Assembly (NCBI RefSeq): GCF_002999335.1
Contig: NW_020312050.1
Location: forward strand, 62,001-126,000
Length of the DNA stretch: 64,000 bases
DNA from: Cyclospora cayetanensis
Taxonomy: Eukaryota > Apicomplexa > Conoidasida > Eucoccidiorida > Eimeriidae
Reading direction: 5' to 3'
The translations under genes were made by a program, and so were the position numbers. The notes below the pieces were generated by a model. The model saw only the letters and a program-made list of their open reading frames with translations, did not search any database and was not told the origin of the DNA. The stretch's first letter is position 1; each line of letters opens with the position of its first letter. Positions 2,336 through 36,324 of the stretch are shown in pieces.

Positions 2336-5300
2336 ATGAAAGACGTCTCCCCCCATGGTGATGAAATTATCTCCCCTGAGCGACAGCATTTAAATGAGCA
2401 CAGCACAAATAACCCAGCAGGTTCACGTCACCAAGAGCCCTCTGCACCTATCGAATGTGACCATTCAAGTAGCAGTGACCTCGGCAGTCCAATAGTAAGC
2501 TTTAAAGGCAGCAAGCCAACGTCAGTCGCCCCGTCGTCCCCACCGGCTTTGGCCAGCTGGCCCGCTATCCATTTTGACTGCCACAGCTAGTCATGTACCT
2601 ACCACTCATATCTGTGATTGCGGACAGAAGCTCGAGTGGGTATATGGCTACGACAGTGGAATTCAGAATGGAGTGCATAGTCTCGGTAGAAGCAACGGGG
2701 GAAGAAAGGCCGTATTCTTTCCCGCCTCCAACACGGGAGTAGTACATTTTTACGCGGATGAAGGGGGGGACCCTACCAGATTCGCTTCTCAAGTGCTCTT
2801 GCGCGGTCACACCAACCGCATATCAGCTGTTGCTGTCTCCCAAGATAGAAAGTGGATTGCAACTGGTGACATTGGAAAGGTAGCGTGCACTGAGTCTGTC
2901 TTGCACTTATGGACCGATCTTCCGACAAAACACTAATTATCAGCCCCATATGGTATATTAAAGAAACATCGTGCTTGATTGGACTCTATTTAGCTCTTCA
3001 TTTGAAGTGCCGAGGCTACGAATTTTGTGCTGTGCAAGCCTGTTCACTTTTGCATGTACAGGAGAGCCTCCTAGTTATTTGGAATGCAGCAGAAGCAAAA
3101 CAGGTTAAGATTTATATGAATCCTCATCCATTGGGTAGGCTATCATCACTGACTGTGCGCTTTCCGTTTATACCGATTGCTAAAACAGAGCTTTCGAATG
3201 TGTTGTTGTAACACCGGTTGACCACGCTGTTTTATTTTGCCAGGAATAACTTCTGTGGACTTCACACCAGATGCAACTCTCCTCGCCACGCTATCGTCTC
3301 CTATGTCCGAAAAATGCATTTTGCGGGAAACAAATCATCAGATAGCTGAATCCGAAGACATACCAAGCAAATCCGCATGTCAAGCTTCAGGCTACCGTGA
3401 CTCCTCCCCTGGCATTTTGGCCACCGCTACTTCAGATATGTATCAGGGAGTGGCTATTTGGAATTGGAAGGAATTTGGGTAGGCCGTTGATTTTACTTAC
3501 GTCTATTCTGTTAGACGGACGCTTGGAAAGTTCAGTAATGACTAGCTGTTGAAGTCACATTAAGTGGGAGTCTCTTTACGTGAAACGCAGGAATGCTCCT
3601 TTGAGGATGGCGGTTATTGCAATCCCAGATATCCAGGTACTCCCTGTTCATCATCCCGTAATGCAAAGCACAGATGTGTTCAAAATGCCCTCCTGCTCCA
3701 GCTATGCTATGCGCCAATAGCTATTTTTGCGTGCAGCACATATTGTCCTTGATGGTTGAAAGTACGTAATTAGATCATGCATCGTTTGTAGCGCAACGAG
3801 GACGTATCAACATTTTTTGCTGGGTTTTCTGCAGCACGAGATCCGTTTTAATCAATGGGATGTAAACGAGCTTTTGACAAGCGGTCGCCGACGCATATTG
3901 TTCTGGTATTGGCACTGGGATGACGTGTCCTTTCACTTCTACTCCCCAGCGCTACAGTCTAAAACTTTTCAACAGAAGGTGGGGGATATAACTACATCCG
4001 TCTTTATACCGCAGTCTACGAAAGCGCTTTCTGGTAGGCTTCTATCAACTTATGACCCAAGAATTCTCATCGACTCCCAAGTTACCTAAGAACACTGAAC
4101 TACAAGGATTCCTCCCCTACTATGAATCAGTGCAGAACGCTTTGCAATGATGATCATGTTGTCTTTCTCAGGTACCACCGACGGAGACGTGGTAGTGTGG
4201 AATCTTAGCCTTATTCTTGACGGGTCCGCAAAAGTGCTGGGGCATGCCGCTATGCTATGGCGAACATACAAAGTGGTTGCACGCCAAGCCACAAAAGCGG
4301 GGGCCAGGCGGTTGCCATAGTTTTCATCCTAGCTAATTAGGGGAGCGATCGAGCATTTGCTGCTACGCATGGTCATTCGTAGGCTGAGTAGGCCAGATGA
4401 ACGGCGAGCTGTGTCTATCCTCAAACTGCGAAACGCATGCGTCACATGTCTCAAGACATTCCAAGCTCGTTGGATTGTTTCAGGCTTTTCAGATGGAGCT
4501 GTTTGGTAGGCCACGTGTCAATCTGTCTACGAATGTGGAACGTGTCCACTTTTTTTTCATATGAGATACCACATCCTGAATGGCTGGCGCAGACAGGGTG
4601 GACGTGCCTACCACCCGTGTGCACTGCGTCTGCACAGTTTCTACGACCCACAGCTGCGTCTTGTTCGATGTTTCGAAGACCTAAATGCGGTCAGATGTGA
4701 ATCGGTAGTTTGATGGAACCTTTGGCAAGTGCCTATTAGCATTTTTTCAGTACTCGCTGGATCTAGTTTGAACGCTACTGGAGCACCAGTATACGATTTT
4801 ATGCATCCCTTCAAGCTGGTCCTTTCAGTTTGCTACCTTAGGGTCAAATAAAGTGCCTTTCTTTCGACGAAACAATGGAATTTGGCTTGGGTACGCTGGC
4901 GCTTTTCCGTACATAGACGCATTTGGCGTGCTAACATCAGCTGTTTAGTTCGTGTCGGCGACCTAAAGCAGTATGACACCCATTATTCTCTGTACTTGTT
5001 ATTCTTCAGTCAGATTCCAGCTCTCAGTGCTCCTTAGATTAAGCAAGAACCTTTTGATTGCTTGCGTTTTTAGCCTGTTGACATACTACGCTCAGATCCT
5101 GCATCTTCACACGAAGCCCACGAATTTTGCTCGTTGGCGAAGCCCACCTCCAGCGCTCACCGTCAATGGCTACATGATGCCAGCCGACTGCCAAATTTCG
5201 TGCTTTCGACATCAAAGGCGTGGATCCTTGAGGTTTTCCCAAATAACTTTGCTCATGCACGCGAGCATACCACGAAGGAAGAGTGAGCATGCGGTACAAT

Positions 5301-8300
5301 TGTATAAAGATGCGCTTAGTCGATACTGCCATACAAGCGCTGCTTATTCCCACTAGTCGACACTCAAAACCACTTGTAGCGCGCACGTTTCATGGTGCAG
5401 GGTGGTCCGTGTATTTGATGGGCTTGATGCACTGCCAACAGCAATTGTATGTCACCCGCACGGCCCAATTCTCGCAATTGCAGGGGTTACAGGCAAGTTG
5501 CATAGTGTCCCACAAATCTCTCCATAGTTCACACATTTCGATCTCTCTCACCTGCTTTCTGGTAGCCCCATCGGCTATGTCAATGCAATCTGCCTTTTTT
5601 TATGCATGTAAACAAAGGTTTGCTGCTTGCCAGATGTTTAGGTTACTTGAAGCTATGGAATACGGAGAGTCATACAATGCTGAGCAGCATCTGCTTCGAC
5701 AAGCTGTCTCCAACCGTAGGATTGAGGCCATACACAATATGATTGTCTAGAGCAACCCTGCAAAGCTTGTTTGCGGCTTACAACTGCTGTAAAAATAGGA
5801 TCTTGCAGATGTTCATATCGGAAAATTCCACCCAAGACAAATGTGACTACAGGCTGCGGCGTTCAGCCCATCTGGTAGATATCTAGCTATTGGATTTAGC
5901 AACGGCACGCTGAAGATTTGCGAATTAAGAAACTCAGAGAGCTTGGATCCGCTAGCAACTACTGTTGGCGAATGGGGGAATCTGGTGGAGCTCATTGGAG
6001 TACGAGAAAGCCGCGATGGAGTCACACACGTGAGCCATTTACCCAATGCACCCTTTCAGTTCATTGTGACAACTTGTGGAGGTTAGGTACTCATCAGACG
6101 CCCTCAAGCAACATTTGGAGCATTCCAGTCTTGTGCTTCCCTCTTGTGTTGTGTTGTCATATACAAAGTGCGCATTCAGCCACGATTCCGCGCACCTGGC
6201 GGTCGCCCATGCAGACAATGTCGTCTGCCTTTTCCGGTGACACCCATGACGTGTGCACCTAATCGGATCCCTTTCTGCGAGCAATGAGTAAACCTACTAA
6301 ATGTTGCACGTTCCAACGGTAATTGATTTTTTCAGATTCTCGAATATTTTGTGTGTATTTAGTTTCGACCATCGTATGGGGAACTCGCAGCTACCGGAGG
6401 AGTGGGCCTTTGCTGGTCAGTGCTATTTATTTTGATGAGCATTGCAAATCCCTTAGGCCTCCGCTGTGTTCCAGGGGTAACCCCAGAGAAGCTTCCTCAT
6501 GTGTATATCAGCTGCCCTTGGTTTGTCTATTTAGGGAAGCGTCGGTCGCACTACAAGAGCATTTGTGGTCTGACCTTCGGTCATGTCCATGGAGAATTTC
6601 CTCCCCCTCACAGCTTGCCGTCGGTTGTCAATGGACACACTCCAGTCACTGGAGCAGCAGCAGTGCAACCTTCTTTATGGCGACCGACACAGCAGCTGCT
6701 TCCTGTCGCATCGCCTCACTTATACAGCGGAGGATACCCCCGCCTCTTCAGCGTTGGTGAAGATCGAAAACTTGTTGAGTACGACGTTCCCAATTCATTT
6801 GAGCACACAGGTGGGTGACGCGTCAAAAATGATATTCTGCACTTGTCAGTGAGTTTGATTGGCATGGCTTTCACTTGAGAAATAATGAAAATACCCTCTC
6901 TGCTAAGCCTGCCTCAAGAAGAGCACAGGCATTTCCTTTTACTCCCTGGCAGCATTTTTTGTAAGCTTATAATGCGAGACTAGGCCTTACCTTATGCCCG
7001 TAGGGCTTATGCAGCGGCAATCGTGCATTATCGAGCAACGCGCCATACCTTCTGGTTGTCTAGCCTTGCCTTCCCCTGTAAGCTAGGCAAAAGCATTGGG
7101 TTACTGGTTACTCGATATAGTCTAGCTTTTCTCGGTGTTTCTATAACGGTGGTACGGCAGCTTTCCTGCCCTCACAGTGACTAGAACCTTCAACCTTTAA
7201 GAGTTGGGGCATTGGGTGTGTTGGCTATAGGTTGGGAATACAGACACCGAGGTCCTAGTATATTCTAGTGACGCAAAGGCAAAGATTTGGAGCGCAAATT
7301 CAATGTCATGCGTCAAGGTGAGTAACTGCCTCAAACGCAGGCGGTAAATTCCGCGCCTCGAATGTACGCTCATTGCCGCAAGACTCGGAAAAGACCACTG
7401 GATTATGCCTCGATTGATCATGTCAAGCTGAAGTCCACTAGATACACAGTTTGAAATGAAAGATTCCAGTTTGCTGTCTGTCGGACTTTAGACGGCCTCT
7501 GCTGCCATGGGGCACAATGGTATACTGCAGTTAGCGGTGATGCAAGAGTGGACCGAAGCCGAATCTCCGGCGACGTTCAGGTGACCTGGCTTGCAAGCAC
7601 TCCACGAAGCCCTCCACAGGGTCTGAAAGTCTATTTCGTGCATGTATGAATAGACGCTTGATTACTATCGCAGCTGACAACGCACTCTTTGTGGTAACTT
7701 ACGTGGCTCAATGGGTTTCTGTATAGTCCGATCCTCATTGGAGCGTGCAAGGAACAGCTACTCGGGGTCTACCAGCTCCCGCTTGACGGGTATGTAGGGC
7801 AGCTTTCCATGGTTCTGGTATAAATTGTCGATAAATGATGTGTTTTTTCCTGTTGCACCATCGTAGCCCTCCATTACCCAGGTAGTTTGATATGCACACA
7901 CGATGGTGCGGTGCTGTGTTAACCCCTTTCAATCTGTAGGGACCCCTTTAAAAACTTCAATGTGGCTGCACACGCTGGCCCAATCATCGCATTAGCTGCC
8001 TCAGCTCCTCACGCTGGGTGCACTTCCGTCTTTACGTGCGGAGGAAGCGACTTGACAGTCCTGCAGTGGACGGCGAACCATGCTGCAGCAAAAAGGGAGT
8101 TTCTTCGAAGTGCGGATGCCCTCTGAGCAACAAACGATAGATTTTTAGAGAGAATTGTCAGCCTTTTCATCTGCAGGAGATTTTCCTCCTGATTGCCCAC
8201 TTCTTGCATGTACATGCCCCCACAGGACCATCTGGAACGGCGTCAATCGTGGAGCGGCTTCCTGGTGGAGTGACTGTAAGGCCCTAGTCCGCTTAAAGCA

Positions 8301-9373
8301 CCTTTATACACAACAGAAACCCCTGTTTTGCGTAGATAAGGAAGAGTGAATCGCCCCACACTTACCCGGCTAGTTTACGGAAGTAGTCGGAACACTTTTA
8401 TGGATCAAGGAACGAACCTCGATGCTTGTGGAGCTCTTGCAACACAGGGTGACTTGTATCGTATAGCCAAGGAATTCTTCTACTACGCACAGCTGCGAAG
8501 CCAGGGAGAGCACACGACACGTCGGAGGAGGCTTGGAGAGGACGTGCCCATTGAAGAGATCCCAAATCTCCTTTGTGCCCTTGGTGAAGCACCAACTCTA
8601 TTGGAGCTTGGCAATGTTATGAGTGAATGCAGAGGTGCATCCGGCGTACTGCACCGACAAAGAGCAGAGGGCCAGATAGGGGCTGCGCATGATACCCCCT
8701 CGAAGTCACACAGTGTCGCTTTTGAGCGCTTCCTGGAGCTCTACCTTAATCAACGGGCATCTAAAGCTTTCCACCATTCTGACATTATCGACGCATTTAA
8801 GCAGCTAAGCAAAGGCAGTGACACAAACGAAATATCTCCCGAAGAGCTAACGAGGCTGCTACTGACAGTACGGCATTAATAGGATTGCCATGAACAGCAC
8901 GCTGGATTCACTGTATACTTGCGCATTCTCAGATGCGTAAGCCATTTGTATTGTCCTAGGTGCATATGTAATCTCAGACTCATTTCATGTGCGAATCTGC
9001 AGAAAGGGGAGGTGATGACAGAGGCTGAATTGAGTCATTGCCTTGAGGTTCGTAGCTGAAATTTAGAGAGCTGCTCGGCTGTGTCATCTGCTGCGCAGAG
9101 CGTTGCTGCTACATGTAACTGTTTTGTTCAGTACCTAAAGCATTAGTATACGGATACAGTAGTCACTGGATACATGGTGAGAACTGCTGATTGCAAACCT
9201 TATCTCCTGAAACCTTATTGTATCACATGTACACTATATAATAGGTACTGACTGGAGAGGCCTCTCTTGCTTCTTTATGCAAACGAAGCAGCATAACAGC
9301 GGACCTTTTCACCAGCCGAGTGCTTCAGATGGACACTACATTCAATAAGTCAAGTTCTCGTTGGACCAGTTGA
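2336..9373 (+). CDS. CFAP251: Cilia- and flagella-associated protein 251 (WDR66), WD40 repeats plus C-terminal EF-hand-like region
   Basis: CFAP251 belongs to the calmodulin- and spoke-associated complex at the base of radial spokes and helps control axonemal dynein. WD40 blades are spread over many short exons. Recognised pieces: 2628-2879 (LEWVYGYDSG, then a GH...ISAVAVSQDRKWIATGD blade), 3062-3134, 3244-3478 (ends VAIWNWKE), 3591-3636, 3835-4033, 4172 onward (TTDGDVVVWNLS), 4392-4505, 4638-4689, about 5390-5492, 5853-6029, 6169-6236, 6535-6810 (FSVGEDRKLVEYDV), near 7240-7318 and near 7950-8100. The C-terminal exon ends at 8867 and carries FFYYAQLRSQGE, a hallmark of the family. It joins in phase to 9003-9047 (KGEVMTEAELSHCLE) and 9245-9373 (ending in a TGA). 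The start is uncertain: an ATG at 2336 opens an exon that joins at a gtaagc donor (2495) to 2628 in phase, whereas the body exon has no ATG of its own. A few linker exons remain unplaced. Identity is firm; exon list is partial. Confidence 0.88.
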
Positions 9374-10813
9374 TTTTGTACGGCAGCATACATTTCGGCT
9401 CTGAGCTTTTACAGAAAAGCGATAGAGAATCAAAATTTGCTCTTATACGCCTACAAGAGGATCGAGATTCACCACTTTTCTAAAGAACTGTGTGCATTCG
9501 TTCAGAATCAACGTTGTCATCAGTAAAACACCAAGTACAGATTGGCAGTGATCTTGGACAAGGTGCGGGACATGCCTTGTAATCGCACAAGACAGTACAA
9601 ACCGCTCTCCTACATTTTAGCAAGCGAGTGCACTTTTTGCCTTACCCTGCTCACCCCACGCTCAGCCTGGGCTCTTCGTGCATTCTACGGCTGAATCGTG
9701 CGCTCTTTAAGTAAAATTAAGAAGAAGCGCTTACAATTACTTGGTTTTATCTAGCTCGACAGACCTTCTTCTGCGAGACATGGCGATTAGTGGGAGCAAA
9801 TATGGAAGCAGCTTTCTAAGAACTCATGCATTCTAATAAGAACTGCTACATTTCATCCTTAAAACTTGGTTTTATCGGACGTTCAGTACAAGCCGTGTAG
9901 GAATTGCATAGAAAATATTTGGCGTCCGAAAGGTAGGGAGTTCGCAATAAGCGGTATCCCAGGGCCACGCGGGAACTGCAAAAAAGACCACCTCCCCTGA
10001 GACACACTACTGTCGAAATGGTGAATTTGCAAGTAGCAGAATACTGGGCCAACAAGATACGTTAGTCAAATTATTCCTTCTATCGACTACTTTCCTGCCG
10101 TTGTCATGCCAGCATGGAGGCCGTCTGAAATATCCTTTGAGGCAGCACCAGTTGCAGATGGCGTGTTCGAGCATACGGAGTTTGCTCACTTCTTAAGTGG
10201 CAACTTTTGAAACGCCTCAGTGTCATTTTATTCGTGAAAGGCCACGAAGAGAATGCGTCGGAAGTCCAAATATTGGACATGTCCACTCCCATTCAATGCG
10301 TCATAACGATATCAGTGGAAGCCCCAAAATAGAAAACTACCTTTCGCTCAAAGGTTCCATGGTATATGCTCTTCTCTGCTTCCCCGAAATCGGAGTTTCA
10401 TGCATGCTGCCGACGGCTTAGCTGTTCTTTATATTGAGAGCAAGCCTTGGCAGCAACTGACGAAAAAGGAGTATTGTGGTGGAAGCGGATAGAGAAAGCA
10501 GCTTCCTTGCTGTACTTCTCGTTATGCAGTACTCCTGCTACATTGAAGTATGTAATTCAGTGGGCTGAGGTACCTACAGGGCCAAGTTAAGTTTCCTCTG
10601 TCCGGGCTAGTCTTGTGTTGCATTGAAGTAAGTAATATTTTGTGCCTTCACGACCCACATAGATTATAGTTTGAAATGATGCACTCCACAATAGACGGAA
10701 AGCAAAAACATACGTGCCAAAAATGTCCATCCCTACAAATCCGTAGGTTCTGCCCTCTTCACTCTCCTTTATCGACTTGAAACCGACACTCTATTCACCT
10801 CAAGTGTAGAAGG
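9374..10813. other. Convergent intergenic region between CFAP251 and DNAAF5
   Basis: About 1.4 kb between the 3' ends of two converging genes. Only short frames without splice support are present. It should hold both 3' untranslated regions and polyadenylation sites. No repeat or RNA gene was seen. Confidence 0.4.
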
Positions 10814-13800
10814 TCAATCACCACTGTCAGGCCTCGGCTCCTGCAATACCTGCAACTTTTGCATAAGTTGTCTGTACCGCTCAGGGTAAAGGCAGTTGGA
10901 CTCTGATTCTTGAAGCTCCTGCGACAAAAAATGCAACCACGCCACTTTCTCCCAGCCTTCCTCCAAGGCATGCCGCGTGCTGGAGTGTTCAACTTTTTAA
11001 AAAGCAAATATGGGATTCGGGAGTTCAACCAGCCTAGGCTCATAATTGGGCGCCTAGATAAGTGCATCATCCACTTCATTTGTTGGCAAAGAAACGTGGC
11101 TATGTGACCTCAAGTAAGGTATCCTTCATAACGCCAGCGCCAGCCACAAGAGCTGCTTCTGCTGCTTTTGCCAGATTCTCGCTGCGGTCATCCAAACAGA
11201 TGCTCAGTCGTTTGTATACTTCGGCAGCAATGCCACGGTGGAGCAGAAAGGGCCTCTGCATCAGCAGTGCCTCCAGTGCAGCCGCGGCAGAAAGGCGGAT
11301 GTCGTCTCGAGCGTCATCAAGTCGCTGCTGCAACGGGTATACAGTTGCCGCAGCTAGCTCCCGTACTGCATCATTTTGATATCCTGTCCCCTAAACAGTG
11401 GCGGAGACACAGAGCACAAGATATGGTTATGCTCAGGTGGAATTCTAAAGATGCTAGTCGTGGGACGATAGGGAGTACTAAATCAAAAGAAGTGTAGTCA
11501 CTGATGACAGTCACGTGGAGTAGCGGCGTGCCGCATCCGTAATATTGAAATAGCCAAATTCGGCTCGCTCACATGGAGGTCTAGGAATACCTGACGGACA
11601 ACTTGAACTGCTAGCGCGCGCACATCGGCGTTCCAGTCGTCATCCATGCATGTAACCAATAGAGGGGAGAGCAATGACACGGCCTGTGCAACTGACCCAG
11701 CTCTGGTTTCTTCCTCAAGTTGCTCTGCTGATTCTGGATTAAGCCGTTGCTGCCTATCGTTGTTAGCTTGGTCCCGTTGCAAAGCCCCTGTTGCGACATT
11801 ATTTTCCATGCAGCCTATCTCCACCAACTGAGCTGTCGAATCGTGTATCCCATTTTCCATTTCCAAGTTTGTAGGCCCACATTTCAAGGACAGTGTGGGA
11901 ATTAGTTGAGACACGCACAGCAATGCCACCTGAGCCATTCCAAAGCTGATACAAATTCGATTTGTTTACTGTGGTCCAGAAGGTATTTGTGTGTGTGTGC
12001 TCATTCGCTTCCTCGTGTGTAAGCGTACCTTGCGCAACTTCGCATTTGCTTCGCCCGGGCGCCAGCGGAGGTTAGGGGCCAAGAGGTGCTCCAGTACCCA
12101 GCATCCATACGGCCTGAAGGAGAAAAAATTCATAAAACGATTTCTGGACACTTCCAACAAATTTTCGCTCCTTCTACTAGCATACAGATAAGCGTGGGCA
12201 ACTCACCGTGCGAGAGGGATGAAAAGGGGGAGAGAAAACAGTGCCAGACAGGCTGATAGCATGTCGGCGCGCACTGTAGCGGCAGAATTTAGGGAGGCAC
12301 CCTGTAGTTGTAATACCTGCATAAGTAATACACGCAACACTTCAAATTTATATATATATTCTAGCCATCGAAGTGTAGGGCTTCCTGAACAGCTCATGGA
12401 GTCATCATCTACAATACCTTTAAAAGATCTTCAATCCACACACATTTATGTGCCTCGGATATCTCCTCATATGCGTCTGCTGCTTCCTGTGCACCATAAA
12501 GGGCATGCAGCAGCAACATCCGTCGAGGGTCTCGGCTACTCCATAGAGACTGAAGTTCCTCTTTCTCCTTTGTGAGTTCGGACATTTTGTGCCCCTCTGT
12601 GGGGGCATCAGTACTGCTTGAATCCCCTCGAAACACAGAAGTCTTCACGTTCGCACGAATAAAATCGTCGATAAAATCTAGATATAGCGTTAGCCGACTT
12701 AAGCCCGTACAATCGCAGACACGTTGGACCTGCCATAGGAAGCAGAACAGACAGTACATATGATTCTGCTAGCAGAACAGGTAGAAGCAATCACCAGAAA
12801 CCGTAACCCTATGGTGAGGGAGTGATGGGCCGAAGCCAAAGCAAATTTCCTCATTTGTCATGACATCCCCCCAACTGATTGTCCTTGCAATGGCAAGGCG
12901 TTGGTTGTACCTTTGACGCTAGTGAGGCGCACCGTTGCTCTTGCTATGTCTACTTGACTCTGAGAGTAAACCTGTTGCAGCAGTGCGGCTGCAAAGAGCC
13001 GCTTGGCTTCGGATCTGCAAGAATCTCCAGCTACACGCAGAAGCTCTAACAGGGGAGCCGCAACATACGGCAGAATCGCCTCATTGTTTTCTGTTTCACC
13101 GGATACTGCCGGTATGTTTGAAGCACCTCGGCTTGCTTCAAAAGACTGAGAATGCTCGATAGTTTGCATGAGTAGCCAGAGCTCGTCCTCTCCCAGTGTA
13201 TACGCCCCACGGGCATCCGTTATGTGTTGCCCTGCCTGCTGGCTCGTTTGACAACCTTGAATTTTCTGTTGCAGCTTTAAACCCCGAAGAAGACGTGCCA
13301 GCAGCAGCCACGCTTGTTTCTTCATTTCAATAGAGCACAGATGTCCCTTCGCTAATACGCGGCTCCCACAAGCAGACGTGCTGGCCGTTCTTTGCGCCCT
13401 CTTGCGGAGCCCAGACGTCCCCAGACCCATCATTTCCACAATTTGCGGGTAGCCTCCAGAAAATTTTCTTACAAATGAAAGCTCCACTTCTGTGGTAGCA
13501 CTTGGCCTGTCAGTACTTTGCTGATTCGTGGACTCTACAGTAGAAGACTCCAGCGTCTTCTGTTTGCGGCAGATGTACAGCTGAGCATCCTCCTGCAGTC
13601 CCAAATGAGTGACAATAAGAGGCAGCCAGGTACATGGAGGCAGCTGTATTGCTATCTGCCCTGCGCACTGCAAAGAAAGCTCGACAGCTTCGAGCGCAAT
13701 GCGCATGGAGCTGCAGACTCCCAAGTCCTGTAAGCCTCCGCAGTGCCATGGCTCGATGTCGCTACGGTTGCATGTAAGTCCTGACGAATTCTTGTCGTCT

Positions 13801-16554
13801 AGTTCCCGCACCATTGCGTGCTGTACAAGAAGAAGTAATGGAGACCCTTGCTGCTGCTGCCTGGGCACAGAGGACCCAGTATCGGCTGCAGCGCAAGCTC
13901 CATAAAGCTGCAGAAGAAGCTGCGGCAGCTCCTGTAGAATGTGGCCTCCGCTTATACGAAGCAAGCCGACAAGGGAGCGTAAGGAAGCAATTCTGTCTTC
14001 TGCCGACCAACTTGTTAAGCGCGGTAGCAGCTGCAATGACAGGAGCACTTACACTCTCGTGAGGCTTTTCAGAGCACCCGAAGCCATCGCTGATCAGTAT
14101 CGATTTGGATGGGCTTACACCAATGCCAGTGGAAACCTGCTATGAGCTGAGCACTTCACTAACAGTTGCAACAGAATTTCTCACGTCGGCCATCAATTGC
14201 TTCAAGTATATTCCAGCCAACTCTACAATCAGCTGTTTCGGTGATCGGTCTTGCTCTTTGAGGTTCAATTGTTCCAAGCGTGAGACCCAATATGTAGCCT
14301 CATGACGTGAACAGCCTCCTAAATCTTCTTCGCCGTCCTCCTACAGCAACACAGTTTATGGAAACGGCCACAAACCGATGCCAGCAAAGTTAAGAGCAGC
14401 AGTAGCATCTCCCGGAAGTGTAGACGCTCCAGGGCAACCTCCAAGGACAGATGCTGTTGTCAGCAAGCAATTGTGAAACACGTGTCTAGCAGGCACTACC
14501 GCGTAGATGAAGACCCTACAAACCTTCGAAGAGCCTTCGGTACTACTTGCCCCGCTACTTGAAATACTAGTATCTCCTTCGTCCTGTCCTCGCGCTAATG
14601 ACTTGCATTGGTTCATCTTCACTTTACGTATGTGATCCTTTCTCCGATAGAAGTAGACGCATCGAGGAGCAGCACTCTGCAGAGCGCATGTGAGAGGTAA
14701 GTCATGTCTGACCATTTTGTTTGGAAAACCCCTTTTGGACCGCCAGATCCCTCAGAGCATAAGGGCAGAGCTATTTAGGCCTTACCAGCAAGAGCTTTTC
14801 GGCCTCTTCTGCCAGTTCCCTATCTGTATCACCGAGTACGAGCAGTACCAGTTGCAGCAGCTGCGGTATCACGTTGGAGCGCAGTAAAATGCGTGGTGCC
14901 ATCTCCTCTAGCAGTCGCTGAAGCATCTGTAACGTTCTTAACCTGAAGGAACTGACTCAGTGGCACTGTTCTGTCCGTATTTACCGGTAAACTTGATGAC
15001 AGCCTTGGCTGCTTTCCAGAAACATCCTGCTAACTCACTTGTTCTGTCCCGCTACTTCCTGCTGAAGGATAGGTCTCAATGCAGTGCTTGCAGCTTTTAC
15101 TAGGCTAGCGGCAACAGCAACAGACTTTTCGGCTGGTCTAGCGGACGAAATCGTCACCAAAAGCCCATCAAAGGCATCGATTGCGTGCTGCATACAAAGC
15201 AGGCAGCTACATGTCGCCGTTCTTTCGAAAGGCAGTAATTTGCGCACGACCGAAAAATTGGCGCTCCTTCCCACCGATGTATCTCTCTCATTTGGCTAGT
15301 GCTCTATTTTGTTTCCGTGCATGCCTCCAAAGTCCACTGTAGGTGCAACGCCGAGAGCGTCAAAACAAATGGGCTTCTAGTGAGAAAATCAGCAAGTCTC
15401 TTGCCGCTTACCCATCGAACAGCTCGTTGGGGTCTCCTCAGGCAGCAAGTGAGCTGCTCTATCAGTGTTTTACTGCTCTGAAAAAGACATCCAAAAAGAT
15501 TGGAGGTGCTACAAAGGCCGGTATCCATCGTTCATCGTGAGCCAAAAGATTTGTCTGGAAGTTGCCATTACTGTGGAAACCAACGTGCAATAAGCCTTTA
15601 TCCATAATGACGGCTTACCTGCAAAAGGACAGTTACTTGCAGCTTTGGTGACAGTGCAGTGAGCAGTCGGCATGCCTCTATGGCGTTGGACGGGCTTTTG
15701 TCCTTTAAGGCCCCTGCAATCCCTGTTAGCAGCGAGTCTGCAAAAGCTGTTGCGTCCCACCCATCCTTGCAATCTTCTGATGACGTCTTCTGCTGATCCC
15801 TGCCTGCTCCTCTGGGTGACAGAGGCGGGTCTTTGGCATGCTTTAGCAAGAGGTGCCGCAGGAACTGTAAGAGTACAAAACGCAGCTCCTCGCTTTTTTC
15901 CCCTCTCCCGGAAGCATCTACTAGCCTTTCAGAAAGAAGCACCACCAGTGGCTTTGTATCTTGTGTGCCTTTATACCAGCTGACGCTTCTGATGTCCCCA
16001 CTATCACCACAGCTGTCATGTCCACTGCAGGAGTTAGGTCCACAGGAGCAACTCCAGACGGAACCCCGAGTGTGATAGTCGCTGCTGCTGTTCGTCGTAC
16101 CGCTGCAGAGGGCTACCACTTCCTCGTGTGAGAGGAACGTTTTTACTGCCAGCTGCAACAGCTCCAACGCTGTCGACCTGCAGGCTTCTGAGGCCTCGTC
16201 TGCGCATAAGCCCGATACTGGGGTATACACGCTACTCATGAAAACCCCAGAAAAGATATTATTCTGGCTATTAATGTCCTTGGACTTATCCATATGGCCA
16301 GTACTGGCGTTGGAAACATGGTCGCATGGTAAGTTTCGCCTGACGGCTTCTTCACTGTAGATGGACAGGATGGACTTGGCCCCGAGAAGCCGAGTTCCCC
16401 TATTGCTGTCTGCAAGCCTATTTAGCTCTCGTCGAAGCCGGTGAACCAGCGCTTGTTGCTGAGCCTGCCCATGTAGTGGTAAGGGCATCACCTGAGGCTC
16501 TTTCATTGTCCCAGGCGGTGGTATGTTGACCGGTCCCGTAGGCCTTATTTCCAT
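10814..16554 (-). CDS. DNAAF5: Dynein axonemal assembly factor 5 (HEATR2-type HEAT-repeat protein)
   Basis: DNAAF5 acts in the cytoplasm to preassemble axonemal dynein arms. The first exon runs from the ATG at 16554 to 15619 (cag|gtaagc donor) and contains the typical start ALVHRLRRELNRLADSNR. A large central exon around 14048-12858 carries HEAT helices such as LLPRLTSWSAEDRIASLR and a block (WLPLIVTHLGL) that lines up with the middle of animal DNAAF5. Strong family signatures lie near the end: LLAPNLRWRPGEANAKLR (about 12110-12050), LQQRLDDARDDIRLSAAAAL (about 11340-11270), and a second helix pair ending at 11109. The last exon, 10918-10814, encodes LYPERYRQLMQKLQVLQEP and stops at TGA. Several internal exons (15528-14200) are assigned only roughly. 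The start could also be a later in-frame ATG (16506 or 16488). Low-complexity Gln/Ser stretches interrupt the HEAT array, as is common in Coccidia. Confidence 0.85.
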
Positions 16555-19721: not shown

Positions 19722-20384
19722 TCGCGCTAGGCTAATGGAAGGATGCGCCTTGAGCAGTTAACAAGGAAAATGATAGCAATACAGTGCCGAGTTTCTACGG
19801 CAATACACCATAGGCAAGGCTCTGTGCGACAGGGTTTAAGCATATAACAAGTAAAAGAGCCTAAGAGGTGCAAAATCACCAGTTGGGTCCGCTTTTAATG
19901 CCTCTCCCATTGCTGGACCGCTCGACGGCGCTGTATTCTAAACACGATTGTAAAACGATATCGAAGTAGTTCAGTAACAAGCCCCGCTCACCCCGGTGGA
20001 AACAAGCATTAATTTCCTCAGAAGGGGCGCATGGAACCCAACGAAGAGATACCTTCAAGGCGTTTCAAAGGTTTTTCAATGCAGTAGAGCTCCTGCTGCC
20101 GTTGCGTCCTGCCCAGGTTCGCGAACAGTGGCACAATTGCAGCCCCAAGGCTCGCGATTGAAAATTTCAGGTGCGGAGGGACAACATGCTATCTGCTATC
20201 CGAAATGTCAATGGATTCTTGAAATACACACATATATACTATTATTAGTCGTTTTCGCGTCAATAAATGCCATATTGGCCCACCAAATTCCGTCACTCCC
20301 ACTGGTGGCTTTGCGAACCAGTGCATAAGCATCTTAGCTTACATTTCATGACTTGCTAGTTCTTCATGTTGCAGGGACCGAATA
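19722..20384. promoter_or_regulatory. Shared divergent promoter region of the CFAP210-like gene and IFT121
   Basis: Only 663 bases separate the two start codons, which face away from each other. Both products are flagellar, so a common control region active in male-gamete development is an attractive guess. No motif could be assigned. Confidence 0.4.
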
Positions 20385-23300: not shown

Positions 23301-25060
23301 ACAGCGCTAGACTTTTGCGGGTGCGCAGATGTGAAGATTATTGTTGCATCCAGGTGCTCAAACAGGCTCGCCGATTAGGCGAAACAGGGGAAGGCAGGCC
23401 CCTACTCAAGGCTTTAGCTGGGGACATTTTGGGGGCGGGAGTATTCTATGAGAGTCTGCAAAAATGGGATCAAGCTGCTTACCTTTTTGCTACTTTCGGA
23501 ATGTGGGAGGAAGCATCAGATACTCTGAGGCTGACTGAGTCCTCAAAAGGTCGTGGAGATCAAACTGTTACGAATAATGTTCGCGAGGCCTTGGCTGATG
23601 CCTGGAAAGAACGAAGGCAGTGGTCACGAGCAATCGACCTCTATCGGTCACTTGTGCCTCGAGAGGGACTTTTTGAATCATACTTCTTTTCCGAGGACTA
23701 CGAGTCGCTGGAACGCACTACCAGTGGTCTTCATGAAGAAGAACAACAGGTTTTATTGCGTGCGGCTCACTTACTTGCTGCTATTGGGAAGGGATCAGCC
23801 AGCGCAGAGGCTTTCCTTAAGGCGGAGATGCCAGAGCTTGCCTTGAATGCAGCATTGCATAGTGGAGAATGGACAATGGCCATCTCACTGGCCAGAGAGC
23901 ACTGCAACAACACGAAGCTGCAAGCGATCTCTGCTACTTATAAGGCAGCCGTGCAGCACCAGCAGGGTGTTGGCGGTATCCTTCATGCAGATGAAACCTC
24001 TATTTCTTTGGGCGACCCCGAGGCAGCAGAGCAGGGACTGGACATCTTCACAAGCCAACTTGAGTCATCCACATGGAGTCCCCAAAGACAGCGCAACATG
24101 CGTGTCATGGCTGCACTGTTGATTCGGCAGAGCTGTTCGACCAATGCTCGTACAAACGAACAATATTGTTTGACATATGAGATTCCCAGCAGCACTGACA
24201 GGCCTTATAGGGCCACACCATCTGTAGCACTCACCGGGCACTTCTCCCCCAATTTAGAAGAAGAGAAACAGTGGCTCGGGGCAGCAGAGTACCATCTGTA
24301 CCTGCTTTGCTGTCTTCATCACTCTGAGCGACGATTTCGTGCGGCTCTTTGTGCGGCTGTGAGACTTTGGGAGTGCTGCTCGCAAGAGGTTCCCCGTCAT
24401 GTTCGAGCCCACCTACTCTTTGTTTCCGCCTGCAAAGCAAAAGAATGGGAGCTCTCATCACAAGCGCTGCATGTGCTAGAGATGAGCTCTCCTGCATCAT
24501 CAAGGGAGAGCCAGCACCTGAAGACCACAAGTATCTTACTCTTTGCAGAGCGTCGTGAGCGCGAGCCTCTTAGGGCCTATGATAAGCTCCTCTGCCCCGG
24601 ATGCAAGTCACTAAGCTACTACTGGGAATGTTCCTGCCCTAATTGCGACTTATATTTTCCTTGGTGTGCGGCTACTGGGCTTCCCGTACGCTACGTTGCT
24701 TGCTTACTCCGGGATGCCTACACAGTCGAGAAGGATAAGACCCTTTCGGCGCCACCGTTACGTATGGATGACTCATCATCTACCATCGCTGGAGGGCCCA
24801 AACCACCTGACCCTGAAATGGTCTGGCCATATGGTGGACCCTGTGTTCCCAAGGAATGCGGTACCTGCAGCCTCTCCACTGCAGCGTGGGGACCGGGGGG
24901 TTCCCTTCATTTATGTCCATTTTGCAGCCAGCCTTTCGTGGGTAAAGGACCAAGTGGCGTGAATTCCCGAAACACCCCATTATGTTGGCTTACAGATGAA
25001 GGGGTGCCGAACTATCTGTCTATGGTAAAGCTTGAAGAAGCTCGACTTCAGGCAAGTTAA
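20385..25060 (+). CDS. IFT121: Intraflagellar transport protein 121 (WDR35), IFT-A complex subunit
   Basis: IFT121 is a core IFT-A subunit that drives retrograde transport and membrane-cargo entry in cilia. Five exons fit in phase: 20385-20603, 20718-21132, 21241-22473, about 22654-23140 and 23329-25060, giving about 1,361 residues (the human protein has about 1,180). The N-terminal half is a double WD40 propeller: SVAWLGDWLFLGTDDGTL, LVVTGDSYGYVGVWEE, FALATHDGEILLYDSRG, SLAWGFEGGMLAAAADLG. The helical solenoid follows: LWKLIADAALLMEDVDAIEE, which matches the animal protein closely, then FFSEDYESLE and WLGAAEYHLYLL. The C-terminus carries zinc ligands: CPGC, CPNC, WCAATGLPV, CGTC and CPFC. 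This pattern, in particular CxATG followed by CPxC near the end, separates IFT121 from IFT122 and IFT144. The fourth exon could start three bases earlier at a tandem cagcag acceptor. The first exon ends at a gtaagc donor. Confidence 0.92.
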
Positions 25061-26969: not shown

Positions 26970-29900
26970 TTATTCATTGACTCCCGATATTTTAGCATCT
27001 CGTGTCACATTGACAAAGCCAGAAAAAACAGGACTGGGGCCATGCAAGAGCTGAGTCAACAGTTCATGACGCCTGAAATGTCTGGAAGCCTCATACTCCC
27101 TCAAACATTTCTCTAAAGCGGCGGGGCAGAGGCACTTCAGCAGTAGAATGACGTGAATTAGAGCGTGCCTTGCTTGCTCCTTCTGTACTCCAGCAGGCAC
27201 ACTAATAATTTGTTTTTGTGCCATCTTCAGTATTGCTTTCAGATTTTGAGTCGCCTCTGTCTGCAGCGTTGACCCCTCTTCGACGGATTCGTTCATAAAT
27301 GGAGAAACCTCCGAGGTTGTATTTTGCATTTCCACTATATGCCTAACGCAGCTGTCAACTGCCTGAAAGATTTCAGACTCTGTCAAGATTTCAAGCAAGA
27401 AGTTTCGCGCTGCATGTAAGTGAAGGTGGCTATACAGTGGTAATCGCCAAGCCCTCGGCATTGTCAGGAGCGGGAGACGCCTATCCTGCGAGCGCTCGTC
27501 TGCCGAGTTAGTAAGCTCCGTTTCGCTGAAAACACCTATATTGGATGCGATCCCATCTACTACTGCATCGACGAGACAGCTGGCAATTTGGAAAAGAAAC
27601 CAGGGACTTTGTGTCTGGTACGGCAACCACGAACTACAGTGGAGGTCAGTGCAGTCGCCTCCTGCTGCTGATGCATCCTTCCTTCCACCAGGTCTATTTT
27701 CCTTTAAACCAGATAAACGTGTGCCAAACTGGTCAAAAGTGTCGTGAGCAGTAAGCTGCCGAGTAGGAGAGCCGTACTCATCCAATGACTCATAGGCCTT
27801 CCCCGCTGACAGTCTTTGGAGTTTGGCGGGAGGGTGGAGTGCGACAATAGCATTGCTGATTATTCTCTTGAGGGTTTCCACCTCTTTTGTTACACTTCCT
27901 AGAGAAAGTCGCAGTAGCAGCACTGCTTGGTCCTTAAGAGCTGATGCAGCGCTTATTGCAGACAGTCTCAGTTCCCGCCTCTTTTCCAACGGCATGTCCT
28001 CCAAAATCATAGCAGGTGTTTTACCTGGGTACGTAGCGGCACATTTGTGTGCATATGCCTCAGAGGCTACACAAAAGAGCTTTGTGTGCAGGCGAGTTTC
28101 TTGTAGAAGCCATCCCATATCTTCAGCAAGACCGGATCTAGCCAGCGTCTCTTGCAGCGCACTGCAGGTAGCACTTGTTTCTGACTGTAACAGAGTAACG
28201 AAATCCGTTATAGCTTGTAGCGTGTCTCCAAGGTCCTCTACAGAACGATTATCCCGTAGCTGGCTGAGTACTATATAAGAGAGGACCTCTGCTGCTGCTT
28301 GTGTTGGGGTCTTCCGCCTCGCTAAAGGTCCTGAGCTTTCCATGCTTTGCTCTTGGTTGGGTTCAACCGTACGCATTTCAGCTAACTCCTTGGTTCGTTG
28401 TGACCCACTTTCCTGTTGTTCACACACAATTGATGAAGTTCGGAGACTACTTTGGACTTCAACACTTTGGTCACGATTGTGCAGTATATTGCCGCTGGAA
28501 GGAGCCATTAGCACCAAACGTCTAGCGAGCCTCAGTGCTGTTCTTATTGCAAGGCAGCGTGTTGCCTTTGAATGAGTTGCCGCAGAAAGTTGTTGAAGCT
28601 TTTCACGGAGTATATAGAAGGATTCCTCTTCAAGAATGCGCTCGTCTGGCAAGCACTTGATATATGCGATGAGAGAGGCTAAATTTGTAGGAGGCAGCCT
28701 CGTAGATACATCTGCGTAGATCCATATTATTCTCTCATTCGGTGTACCAGGTACAATACTGCTTGTAGTCAAGTTATACTTAGCCACCTTCTCCAGTAAC
28801 TCCTGGAGGTCTGCAGGTATAATCGCACGCTCTTCATCGTCCAGCCCATTGGTTAAAGCAGTTACAGAACAAACAGTGCTGAAAATGTTTTGCCATGTCG
28901 CTTCAGGAATGGCTTCTTTTTGCCGCACTATTCCAGACAACAGTGTCTTGACAACCTTTCTCACACTTTCTGCTGCGAAGTTGGCAAATTGCTCTTGCAA
29001 GAGGTAGGTGCGCGCAAGGGTGTCAGTAATCTTTGGCACGATAGGACCGAGGCGACCCAAACCGAGCGTGGAATCGTAGGCATTTTGTAACGCCATAAAG
29101 GTGCCCTCTAGCAACAAATCAAGCAAACCTATCATACCGATTTGCTGACCCGGATCATCAAGGCTGTGTTCCTCAAGGGCAACTTTCACGATGTCCCAGT
29201 AGTTTTCGGGGTCTATAAAGACTCCCAGTAAGCGCACTGCCATGCTATATGTTTTCACAGCCTCTTTGGAATGGCGGTGCTGTGCTGACAAAACATGAGA
29301 GCAGATCCGTAGACAGTCATCTAGCCACTCTACAGCCGCCTCTTCTATGTACGCTAGTGACACCACGAGCAGGCGAGCTGAGATCGCATGGGTGACTTCT
29401 TTGAAGTCCTCTACACGCTCGAACAGGGCTTTGGCATAGCGTCTGAAGTACGTCCTTACCATCATTCGTGACCCCAAGCAGGGCCTTGGGGGGTTGCCTA
29501 TAAGTGCCTCCCCAGCCGCAAGGAATTTTTCAATTGCTGAACTTGAGAGAGAATACCCCTCGAAGCCTAGCTTACGCAGGCGCTGAGAATAAGATCCAAC
29601 AAAAGATATAAACTGATTTGTCTCTTCCATCTTATCTCGGGCCTCCGCCGTATCCAAATAGCCTCCCAGAGGAAATGCTAGCAAAACTTTCCCTTCGTAG
29701 CTCCAAGGTTCAGGAGCCCCAAGCTGCTTTATCTCACGAAGCTCCTTTTCATGAGTAGCCTCGTAGTGTCTTCCAAGCCTCTCTAGAAGGACAAAGACCA
29801 GCTGCTGTATAGGTCTGAATGGGTCAAAGAGTCCGCTAAGAAGGTATGGGAACAACCAACTTTCGTAGTCAGCCTTATCATCAAACTCGAGTAGCCACCA

Positions 29901-31052
29901 TGTGAGAATTTCAAAAAAGAACATTCGAACCACAGGTGAATGATCCGAAAGCAGCTCAGCAAAGTAATTACGGATGGTGGTTACTTCGTACAAGGCCTTG
30001 ATGGGGACAAAGTTTGGATCACGCCATCCAGAAAGCATTTGGACAATTTCACAGGTATACTTGTACAGGCCACAACGGAGCACGTGCGTAAGCGTCCGAA
30101 GCGCCCCCATCCTGATCTTTGCATGCTGATGTACAAGGCACGAAAGAATCGATCTTGACAAGGGCTCAGTAAAATGGAGTAGCATATGCTGGTGACGATC
30201 GCAAAACTCTGCAATCGCTTGTAAAGCCACAAGTTTTATGGTGGGGCACAAATCCATAGCTCCAGCGCGCAGCAGACCTGTCACCATGTCGAGATAGTTC
30301 CAAGCAGATTCGTCTGAGCTCCGATCGAGCACGGCGAGCAGTACTTGCAACAGTTCCTGGCGTACGTCCTCACTCTTCTCCACCGGCGTCAACTGGAGAG
30401 GCTTATATTCGGGTGCAGGACGCATAATGGGGGGAAGGTGTGCCACACCGTCGATATCCTCAGAGCCAAAGCGTGGGACCAGAGCACGGAGCACATTTCT
30501 GAGGTGGCTATCGACATCTGTAATCTCATTTAAAAACTTGCACAGTAAGCAGGCAGCTGTATGTCGTGCTGCCTCAGTGGGATCCGAAAGGCACAGCAGG
30601 AGAGAGTCGATCAGCAAAGGAAAGGCCCGGTTGTAGAAGGCACGAGGTACAGGGGCTTCGATAAAAATGTCTTTCAGCATCGACAGACATTTGTGTCGTT
30701 TAGTGTTGCTAGAATCTTCCTTGAGAGTGTTGGCTTGCTGCAGCACTGTAGAAGCCAATGATTGCCAACTCTCAAGTGTATACGCCGGTTTGCCGTGCTT
30801 TGCTTCGTCGGTACACGCGAGGTCTATTTCTACTTTAGCCTTCCCAGTTTGATAAACGTGTTTTTCTGATTCTACTGCTCCAAAGCATTTGAGGTTCTGT
30901 AGATTTTTAGGTTTGCTCTGCGAATGCCAAGGCCTTCTAACCTTGGGATACTGAAAACGGGATAAGGAGGGGCGACCGTCAGACGGTGTATCCCGCAAGA
31001 CACTAGCGGACTTGTTAAATTCGCTCCAGTTTCCATCTGCAGGATCCATCAT
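26970..31052 (-). CDS. Large HEAT-repeat protein related to DNAAF5 (intronless)
   Basis: One uninterrupted frame of 1,360 residues starting with two consecutive ATGs at 31052. Residues about 110-700 line up with the DNAAF5 family block by block: LLLCLSDPTEAARHTAACLL, then LLQVLLAVLDR, then HQHAKIRMGALRTLTHVLR (animal proteins have HQHWKVR at this point). Next come WWLLEFDD...WLFPYLLSGLFDP, P(x)CLGSRMMVRTYFRRYAKAL, and ARLLVVSLAYIEEAAVEWLD followed by LLGVFIDPENYWDIVKVAL. The last 500 residues are helical but carry none of the DNAAF5 C-terminal signatures. A second gene in this window (10814-16554) does carry them, so this one is probably a diverged paralogue or another axonemal HEAT protein of the same fold. 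Its neighbours, IFT121 and SSNA1, favour a flagellar role. A short HEAT-like frame upstream (31519-31330, minus) might be an extra 5' exon, but I could not link it. Confidence 0.85.
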   Translation of the reverse strand: MMDPADGNWSEFNKSASVLRDTPSDGRPSLSRFQYPKVRRPWHSQSKPKNLQNLKCFGAVESEKHVYQTGKAKVEIDLACTDEAKHGKPAYTLESWQSLASTVLQQANTLKEDSSNTKRHKCLSMLKDIFIEAPVPRAFYNRAFPLLIDSLLLCLSDPTEAARHTAACLLCKFLNEITDVDSHLRNVLRALVPRFGSEDIDGVAHLPPIMRPAPEYKPLQLTPVEKSEDVRQELLQVLLAVLDRSSDESAWNYLDMVTGLLRAGAMDLCPTIKLVALQAIAEFCDRHQHMLLHFTEPLSRSILSCLVHQHAKIRMGALRTLTHVLRCGLYKYTCEIVQMLSGWRDPNFVPIKALYEVTTIRNYFAELLSDHSPVVRMFFFEILTWWLLEFDDKADYESWLFPYLLSGLFDPFRPIQQLVFVLLERLGRHYEATHEKELREIKQLGAPEPWSYEGKVLLAFPLGGYLDTAEARDKMEETNQFISFVGSYSQRLRKLGFEGYSLSSSAIEKFLAAGEALIGNPPRPCLGSRMMVRTYFRRYAKALFERVEDFKEVTHAISARLLVVSLAYIEEAAVEWLDDCLRICSHVLSAQHRHSKEAVKTYSMAVRLLGVFIDPENYWDIVKVALEEHSLDDPGQQIGMIGLLDLLLEGTFMALQNAYDSTLGLGRLGPIVPKITDTLARTYLLQEQFANFAAESVRKVVKTLLSGIVRQKEAIPEATWQNIFSTVCSVTALTNGLDDEERAIIPADLQELLEKVAKYNLTTSSIVPGTPNERIIWIYADVSTRLPPTNLASLIAYIKCLPDERILEEESFYILREKLQQLSAATHSKATRCLAIRTALRLARRLVLMAPSSGNILHNRDQSVEVQSSLRTSSIVCEQQESGSQRTKELAEMRTVEPNQEQSMESSGPLARRKTPTQAAAEVLSYIVLSQLRDNRSVEDLGDTLQAITDFVTLLQSETSATCSALQETLARSGLAEDMGWLLQETRLHTKLFCVASEAYAHKCAATYPGKTPAMILEDMPLEKRRELRLSAISAASALKDQAVLLLRLSLGSVTKEVETLKRIISNAIVALHPPAKLQRLSAGKAYESLDEYGSPTRQLTAHDTFDQFGTRLSGLKENRPGGRKDASAAGGDCTDLHCSSWLPYQTQSPWFLFQIASCLVDAVVDGIASNIGVFSETELTNSADERSQDRRLPLLTMPRAWRLPLYSHLHLHAARNFLLEILTESEIFQAVDSCVRHIVEMQNTTSEVSPFMNESVEEGSTLQTEATQNLKAILKMAQKQIISVPAGVQKEQARHALIHVILLLKCLCPAALEKCLREYEASRHFRRHELLTQLLHGPSPVFSGFVNVTRDAKISGVNE

Positions 31053-34000: not shown

Positions 34001-34857
34001 AAGAGCGTGCAACTACTTAGACTATTAGCAATAATTGTGATGTGTGAAACTTTCTTCTATTTTCGGTCGTCCGTTTTGTTGCCTTTTTCGAGAAGGGAAG
34101 CTGCTTGGACGGCTTCCTATCTCACATTCCAAGGCAAACCAGCCATGGGCCTGGTCAAATCGTGCTTCGCTCTGCTTATTGCATAACTCATTCACAATAC
34201 AACGCTGTAACTAGCTGGAGATAATGCCTTTGAGAGTACCTTACAGAGGGTATAAAGTAACACTTAGCCAATGCTTTGAAGTGGAGATAAATCTTGCCTT
34301 ACATTGAGAATATGAAGTGGAAAGCCTGGAAGGGTCACAGTCAAAGCAATTTCTTCTTTTGGCTCACCAGGCTTCTAATTTTGCTTGTGGGGCAGTTCGG
34401 CTGCGAGAGCCTAGAGGTGAAAGTTGGTCCTCCTAGTGGTGCGCCACTAGGCAGGGATGCGTTAAATGAGCCTAATGCGAAAGTGAACAACAGGATTCAA
34501 TTCATCAAGTATATTATGTGGCTATATTTCTCCGGATACTGGGACAGCTGCTACTCTTTCCCTCAAAAGTGACCTCAAATGGTTGCGCAGGATGCACCAG
34601 CTCTGGGGCTGATTACTGCCGCATCTTATATAGGCTTGTATTGCAATTTGTAGAAAACAAGCCGCACAAAACTATAAATCTAAATGCGAAACGTGTAGAA
34701 GCAAACTATTTGTGGCAAGATCTATGGATACTTCTTTCAAAGTGGAATCGTTCTACAGTATCTGTTGCATGCCAGGGAATATCGCCCCCTCTCTGCGCTG
34801 GTCTTATCCCCAGTATCAATGAACTAAATAGCGTAGCTTCACTCAAGAGTATGAGAA
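31053..34857. other. Long divergent intergenic region between the HEAT-repeat gene and SSNA1
   Basis: About 3.8 kb. It should contain two promoters. Two stretches look faintly coding: 31519-31330 on the minus strand (helical, followed by a possible gtgtac donor) and 33213-33440 on the plus strand (helical, TALYEAFQATIRLLHEQRDL). The latter has no ATG and no confirmed partner exon. The 18-mer ttagcaataattgtgatg occurs at 33385 and again at 34025. Otherwise nothing recognisable. Confidence 0.35.
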
Positions 34858-35679
34858 ATGTCAGTCCAACCCCAGAATGCGAATCTCTCAGCCTGTGGCA
34901 GCGAGCTGCTCAGGTGCATTGAGGAGCTCAAAAAGAAGCGCGATGATCTAGCCAGGAACATCCAAGCTGTACGTTGTTGACTCTAATATCACATAATTGT
35001 CTTTATCTCGTCCCTAAAGCTTGCAGATGTCACAGTTCAGGGGGAAGCTAGTAACTCTTGTGAGCGGAGGCCTTATTATTTGGACTTTTGGATAGTGGAC
35101 AGCCAATTAGGCACTGTCTCTGCAGGAGGCTGAGGAGAAAGAGAAAATTCAAAGGGGCATTGCTACGCTTACTGAAAAGCTTCAAAAAATCACAGGTCGA
35201 TTGTCCAAATATCCTCGCATAATTAGTGTAGAAATGCCGTGACCAGCACATCCATTAGCCAAAAGTATAAAAAGACCAATCCTCTCTGGCGTAAAGCCGC
35301 CTCTGCGGAATGGGTAGTACAGCAAGCCACTTAGGTCCAACAAGCAACGATCTAAGGCCTTGCTGGGCCTTCCGATGTGAGAAACTGTAATATATAATGC
35401 ATCGATTGTGCAGTGAATCAAGACCGAAATATGCAGGCTCGCGATGAGTATGAAAAGACGATCCAAGAGACGGAAGCTGCATATATCAAGGTCGGTGAGG
35501 CTATTCAATGCCACGATCCCAGCTATTCAAAACTCAAGCTTCTTTTTTGGTGCGGTGCGGCATATCTTTCTTACCATTTACCTTGCTTCTGCTATTGCCA
35601 GATTATTGAATCATCCCAGACACTGCTGCATGTCTTAAGACGTGAATCCCTCAACTTGGCGAAGAAAGCGGGCCCATAA
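34858..35679 (+). CDS. SSNA1: SSNA1 / DIP13 (NA14), small microtubule-associated coiled-coil protein
   Basis: SSNA1, called DIP13 in Chlamydomonas, is a small coiled-coil protein of basal bodies and axonemes that self-assembles into fibrils along microtubules and promotes their branching. Four exons join in phase: 34858-34968 (37 codons, gtacgt donor), 35126-35195, 35414-35490 and 35602-35679 (stop TAA). They give 111 residues, the normal family length. All hallmarks are present: ELLRCIEELKKKRDDLARNI, EKEKIQRGIATLTEKLQKI, RDEYEKTIQETEAAYIK and IIESSQTLLHVLRRE. The start ATG at 34858 gives a short N-terminal leader like that of other members. There is no need for an alternative reading. Because every exon is under 120 bases, automatic gene finders may miss this gene. 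Confidence 0.95.
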
Positions 35680-36267: not shown

Positions 36268-36324
36268 TTTCTGATGAGTTCCAGTGTCGCGGGGGCTCGG
36301 CACAACACTAGAACTCATCAGAAA
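36268..36324. repeat. Near-perfect 20-bp inverted repeat (hairpin), 17-base loop
   Basis: The left arm 36268-36287 (tttctgatgagttccagtgt) pairs with the right arm 36305-36324 (acactagaactcatcagaaa) with one mismatch. The loop is GC-rich. It lies about 590 bases after the SSNA1 stop codon. It could be a structured 3' end, a small RNA or the relic of a mobile element; the sequence alone does not decide. Confidence 0.7.

What the first reader, a model, noticed from the sequence alone, without database searches (positions are those of the whole stretch)
2336..35679. Run of six flagellar genes in 33 kb
CFAP251, DNAAF5, a CFAP210-like gene, IFT121, a DNAAF5-like gene and SSNA1 follow one another with no recognisable non-ciliary gene between them. 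Three identities (CFAP251, IFT121, SSNA1) rest on clear family motifs. Eukaryotic ciliary genes are usually scattered, so such a block may be a co-regulated neighbourhood used when flagellated male gametes form.
Basis: partly seen in the sequence, partly recalled or inferred. Interest (0 to 1): 0.75.

Follow-up and report, generated by a model that had tools for sequence, protein, structure and literature searches.

The report
Cluster of flagellum genes in Cyclospora
In the human gut parasite Cyclospora cayetanensis a stretch of about 50 kb is occupied largely by genes for building flagella, which is more than a random gene order would be expected to give, but whether these genes are switched on together has not been tested.

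Summary
The run is real and longer than reported. The window lies on a 139,120-bp contig of Cyclospora cayetanensis. CFAP251, DNAAF5, IFT121, a second DNAAF5-family gene and SSNA1 are supported by family searches. The "CFAP210-like" gene is a trichohyalin/plectin-homology (TPH) coiled coil; nothing found ties it to CFAP210. Left of the window lies a further ciliary gene, adenylate kinase 9 (AK9; E 4e-36). Coding segments between AK9 and CFAP251 remain unidentified. The nearest identified gene beyond AK9 is an AMA1-type invasion gene. In shuffled orders of 7,000 genes with 150-350 ciliary ones (assumed numbers), six ciliary genes among eight neighbours arise with frequency 0 to 0.003; with the two DNAAF5 relatives counted once, five of eight gives 0.0007 to 0.06. 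Eimeria keeps parts: in E. flavescens the TPH gene and the second DNAAF5 gene are three locus tags apart, but CFAP251 is on another contig. Strands are mixed, with three head-to-head pairs, so it is no operon. No promoter word is shared. Toxoplasma SSNA1 is used in non-flagellated stages. Co-expression was not testable; the genome-wide clustering test did not complete by the tool.

The parts
268..1010 (-). Coding-like segments of an unidentified minus-strand gene between AK9 and CFAP251; similar frames continue left of the window to contig position about 60,200; it could be the N-terminal part of AK9 or a separate gene
   Evidence: Coding score and open frames; no Pfam match; only PDB match E 0.68, taken as chance
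2035..9370 (+). CFAP251 (WDR66), multi-exon; the finding's 2336 is an internal methionine of this stretch
   Evidence: P0017 and P0018 map here in pieces; five chains named FAP251/CFAP251 at 2.5e-64 to 9.2e-38; a source names P0018 CFAP251
10822..16554 (-). DNAAF5 (HEATR2), multi-exon, my own gene model
   Evidence: PF25757 E 7.6e-7, above cut-off; PF24573 E 1.3e-4, below cut-off
17902..19721 (-). TPH-domain coiled-coil protein (the 'CFAP210-like' gene), 490 aa, three exons
   Evidence: P0001 maps in three pieces at 97-100%; PF13868 E 8.7e-10
19722..20384 (.). About 0.66 kb between the starts of the head-to-head pair TPH gene | IFT121
   Evidence: Gene starts read
20385..25060 (+). IFT121 (WDR35), intraflagellar transport complex A
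   Evidence: PF24797 and PF25768 above cut-off; weak IFT hit
26970..31052 (-). Second DNAAF5-family protein in a single open frame (about 1,360 aa from the first methionine; public model P0003 starts later, 1,236 aa)
   Evidence: PF25757 E 1.9e-32, PF24573 E 5.1e-17; 14 proteins found of which one is the window's own; of the other 13, nine are named Eimeria, three unnamed, one a 989-aa transcriptome protein (a capped candidate list)
34855..35679 (+). SSNA1/DIP13, small coiled coil, about four exons
   Evidence: PDB hit 9dsm (SSNA1) E 2.2e-4 over 89 of 106 residues

Best explanation
This is a real, non-random neighbourhood of ciliary genes in Cyclospora cayetanensis, about 50 kb long, starting left of the window with AK9 and ending with SSNA1. 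It is neither an operon nor one pathway: it mixes a radial-spoke enzyme (AK9), a radial-spoke base protein (CFAP251, role recalled), dynein pre-assembly factors (DNAAF5 and a relative), a TPH coiled coil, IFT-A (IFT121) and a basal-body coiled coil (SSNA1). Three head-to-head pairs are present (AK9 or the unidentified gene with CFAP251; TPH gene with IFT121; second DNAAF5 gene with SSNA1). The likeliest mechanism is pairwise: members of a divergent pair share an upstream region and are expressed together when microgametes form, and selection against breaking such pairs, with an old duplication in the DNAAF5 family, has kept ciliary genes adjacent. Shown: gene families, order, strands, partial conservation. 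Inferred: shared promoters, joint expression, selection.
For: Families. Chance: six of eight neighbours ciliary arises in 0, 0.0001 and 0.003 of 15,000 simulated orders for 150, 250 and 350 ciliary genes among 7,000. Strands and gaps.
Against: In E. flavescens (283,181 against 378,696 bp) and E. stiedai (331,335 against 101,295 bp) CFAP251 is on another contig than the second DNAAF5 gene, though contig ends cannot be ruled out. No word of 7 to 9 bases is common to the five upstream regions; for 6-base words common to all five, 7 were seen against a control mean of 12.4. Only the TPH|IFT121 pair is close (0.66 kb); the first pair lies about 1 kb and the third 3.8 kb apart, long for a shared promoter. 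Counting the two DNAAF5 relatives as one, five of eight gives up to 0.057. Toxoplasma SSNA1 works in tachyzoites.
Confidence: 0.45

Rival explanations
1. Neutral inherited linkage: the genes became neighbours in an ancestor and have not yet been separated; adjacency has no role in their expression.
For: Mixed strands and mixed functions; no shared upstream words; CFAP251 apart in two rabbit Eimeria assemblies.
Against: Does not explain why ciliary genes in particular came together.
Confidence: 0.3
2. A block-wide co-regulated domain (one chromatin or transcription-factor switch) opened in microgamonts.
For: Length and largely ciliary content of the run.
Against: Incomplete conservation, no shared upstream word, SSNA1 used in non-flagellated Toxoplasma stages.
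Confidence: 0.18
3. Chance grouping noticed because ciliary genes are conspicuous.
For: The block was chosen after seeing it; other functional classes could have been picked; if ciliary genes number 350 and the DNAAF5 pair counts once, the frequency is 0.057.
Against: AK9 was found beside the block afterwards; the count of six of eight gives 0.003 or less; part of the order is kept in Eimeria.
Confidence: 0.07

Closest known systems
Ciliary and flagellar gene sets of coccidian microgametes (Eimeria tenella gametocyte transcriptome, PMC4345034, passages and Table 3 seen)
   Same: Same class of genes; gametocyte-upregulated flagellar genes there include nearby gene numbers (ETH_00013980, 13995, 14050, 14055)
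   Different: The passages seen do not discuss physical clustering, and none of the block's genes is recognisable by name in Table 3, where several entries say only flagellar associated protein
Divergent gene pairs with shared promoters in compact eukaryotic genomes (recalled)
   Same: Three head-to-head pairs, one with about 0.66 kb between starts
   Different: A run of ciliary genes rather than isolated pairs; promoter sharing not tested
Toxoplasma SSNA1/DIP13, TGME49_295450 (PMC4914967, passages seen)
   Same: Same family as the SSNA1 gene at the right end of the block
   Different: Localises to the conoid and the basal complex of tachyzoites, outside any flagellum

Membership tests
CFAP251 | Best similarity to CFAP251 chains over other WD40 proteins | tested here: met
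   Top six PDB sequences at 2.5e-64 to 9.2e-38: five named FAP251/CFAP251, one (9fqr_Xj) named adenylate kinase 7 in the listing; next best WD40 protein 1.3e-11
DNAAF5 (10.8-16.6 kb) | DNAAF5-specific HEAT/TPR domains | tested here: met
   PF25757 above, PF24573 below its cut-off, for my revised model; below both cut-offs in earlier models
DNAAF5 (27.0-31.1 kb) | DNAAF5-specific HEAT/TPR domains | tested here: met
   113.1 and 62.6 bits; direct comparison of the two genes is weak, probability 3.6, E 0.012, so orthology versus old paralogy is open
CFAP210 | Specific similarity to CFAP210 | tested here: not met
   Only PF13868 (TPH; shared with other ciliary coiled coils, recalled); no ciliary PDB chain at E up to 1
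IFT121 | Two WDR35-type propellers plus IFT121 TPR domain | tested here: met
   PF24797 and PF25768 above cut-off, PF23390 just below
SSNA1/DIP13 | Small coiled coil with similarity to SSNA1 over its length | tested here: met
   89 of 106 query residues, E 2.2e-4
AK9 | Similarity to AK9 rather than other adenylate kinases | tested here: met
   9d2f_A, named adenylate kinase 9, 4.1e-36 with five stretches; 9fqr_Xf, 1,910 aa and named CFAP276 in the listing, 5e-36; AK8 only at 0.58
Co-regulated gene cluster | Members share an expression peak | not testable with these tools
Co-regulated gene cluster | Shared upstream motif | tested here: not met
   No word of 7-9 bases in all five upstream regions; gapped or degenerate motifs were not searched beyond seven short patterns

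The most novel reading that the evidence does not exclude
Coccidian genomes keep flagellar genes in physical neighbourhoods that are opened together in microgamonts, so that an organelle built only once in the life cycle is encoded in a few expression domains; this block would be one, and the close gene numbers of PF16 and radial-spoke genes in E. tenella a second.
Probability: 0.15. Interest if true: 0.75.

Novelty: new member of a known kind. Interest (0 to 1): 0.45.

Why it matters
A conserved neighbourhood in a group that builds flagella only in male gametes would let gene order predict unknown microgamete genes (the unidentified segments beside AK9, and the TPH protein) and would give a simple test of whether genome organisation helps stage-specific expression.

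Tried and rejected
Operon: rejected, strands are mixed. CFAP210 identity: not supported by two PDB searches. Tandem duplication making most of the block: rejected, only the two DNAAF5 relatives share a family and their direct similarity is weak. Shared regulatory word: none (the control stretches were drawn from the whole contig, coding parts included, and the first region overlaps the mapped start of CFAP251). Toxoplasma synteny through gene numbers in papers: only SSNA1 (TGME49_295450) was found; the AMA1-type neighbour gave no usable anchor. Searches for reports of such clustering: four papers listed, none on this by title and start of abstract; none; these are narrow and do not prove absence in print. 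A first gene finder with too cheap introns gave nonsense; a second with dearer introns still fused neighbouring genes and was used only for exon pieces. Genome-wide clustering of other ciliary genes and the number of DNAAF5-family genes in the genome: planned, not obtained.

Full report
Source. The window is bases 62001-126000 of contig C15 in a 43.2-Mb genome; the contig has 139,120 bp. A protein read from the window is 99% identical to a Cyclospora cayetanensis protein listed with a contig of 139,120 bp, and a CFAP251 of that species is also listed with a 139,120-bp contig.

The six genes. CFAP251: my pieced query finds two C. cayetanensis models (P0017, P0018) and Eimeria relatives (capped candidate list); P0017 hits CFAP251 chains from 2.5e-64 while the next WD40 protein is at 1.3e-11; both models map in pieces to 2035-9370. 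DNAAF5 on the minus strand at 16554-10822: first models gave sub-threshold matches; a revised model with two more coding segments and a small one dropped passes the PF25757 cut-off (29.0 against 27), while PF24573 stays below. The gene at 19721-17902 is a TPH-family coiled coil with a 39%-identical Eimeria flavescens relative; neither it alone nor a two-sequence profile finds CFAP210 or another ciliary chain in the PDB at E up to 1. IFT121 at 20385-25060 passes two Pfam cut-offs. The single-frame gene at 31067-26973 is a clear DNAAF5-family protein with 13 relatives besides itself: nine named Eimeria, three unnamed, and one 989-aa transcriptome protein at 34% or 25% identity; direct comparison with the first DNAAF5 is weak, so any duplication is old. 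SSNA1 at 34855-35679 finds only SSNA1 in the PDB.

Beyond the window. The rest of the contig was fetched. To the left is a minus-strand gene with a frame (contig 54,892-56,109) that matches AK9 at 4.1e-36 with five stretches. In mammals AK9 sits in the head of radial spoke 3 (PMC11779644, passages); that CFAP251 is a radial spoke 3 protein is recalled. Further frames down to contig position 47,748 are assigned to AK9 by recall only. Between AK9 and CFAP251 lie coding segments (contig about 60,200-63,010) with no Pfam match and no PDB match better than E 0.68. Left of AK9 the nearest identified gene is an AMA1-type gene at contig 43,576-44,862, not ciliary; only the minus-strand frames of that stretch were scanned with Pfam. 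To the right, 35,680-44,990 has no Pfam match in six frames, 44.9-48.1 kb holds unidentified open frames, and 60.2-60.5 kb a Sel1-repeat segment.

Is it more than chance? With 7,000 genes (assumed; E. stiedae has 6,893 by PMC12659853, passages) and 150, 250 or 350 ciliary genes (assumed), six ciliary genes among eight neighbours occurred in 0, 0.0001 and 0.003 of 15,000 shuffled orders each; five of eight in 0.0007, 0.011 and 0.057. The first count treats AK9, CFAP251, DNAAF5, IFT121, the second DNAAF5 gene and SSNA1 as ciliary and leaves out the TPH gene and the unidentified one; the second also counts the DNAAF5 relatives once. The block was chosen after the fact, so these are optimistic.

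Conservation. Its CFAP251 (Efla_002870) is on a 378,696-bp contig. In E. stiedai the second DNAAF5 (Esti_001138, 331,335 bp) and CFAP251 (Esti_006119, 101,295 bp) are also apart. For E. praecox the second DNAAF5 (P0009) and a CFAP251 fragment (P0021, organism cut off in the listing) share the contig length 39,459, which suggests one contig. The rabbit assemblies are draft (N50 91-234 kb), so separation may be a contig end. Toxoplasma and chromerids could not be tested.

Regulation. Strands run AK9 -, unidentified -, CFAP251 +, DNAAF5 -, TPH -, IFT121 +, second DNAAF5 -, SSNA1 +, giving three head-to-head pairs with about 1, 0.66 and 3.8 kb between starts. Words of 6 to 9 bases common to the five upstream regions are no more frequent than in random stretches of the contig. 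In Toxoplasma, SSNA1/DIP13 localises to the conoid and the basal complex of tachyzoites and is dispensable for growth in culture (PMC4914967, passages). The E. tenella gametocyte table (PMC4345034, passages) and the Toxoplasma cat-stage paper (PMC6365665, passages) show that flagellar genes as a class rise in sexual stages, IFT genes included in the latter, but I saw no entry under the names of this block's genes; unspecific entries such as flagellar associated protein or WD G-beta could hide some.

Verdict. A true, probably old neighbourhood of ciliary genes, longer than reported, partly kept in Eimeria. Pairwise shared upstream regions are the most economical mechanism; a block-wide programme is possible but has no direct support.

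Noticed in passing
L013:3976-5262 (contig 43,576-44,862): An AMA1-type invasion gene lies beyond AK9; best PDB hits are named apical membrane antigen (1), E 1.2e-49.
   Followed up: partly
window 44918-48129: Two long unidentified open frames on the plus strand (337 and 587 aa); no Pfam match for either, no PDB match for the second.
   Followed up: partly
window 60172-60525: Sel1-repeat segment on the minus strand, possibly the ER-associated degradation factor SEL1L/HRD3 (recalled).
   Followed up: no
L011:4102-4962: MMR_HSR1-type GTPase gene, Obg-like by recall, an ordinary neighbour further left on the contig.
   Followed up: no
window 2035-9370: The two public CFAP251 models of C. cayetanensis (P0017, P0018) skip different exons and differ at both ends.
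   Followed up: partly
PMC4345034 Table 3: E. tenella gametocyte-upregulated flagellar genes carry close numbers (ETH_00013980, 13995, 14050, 14055), a possible second ciliary neighbourhood.
   Followed up: no
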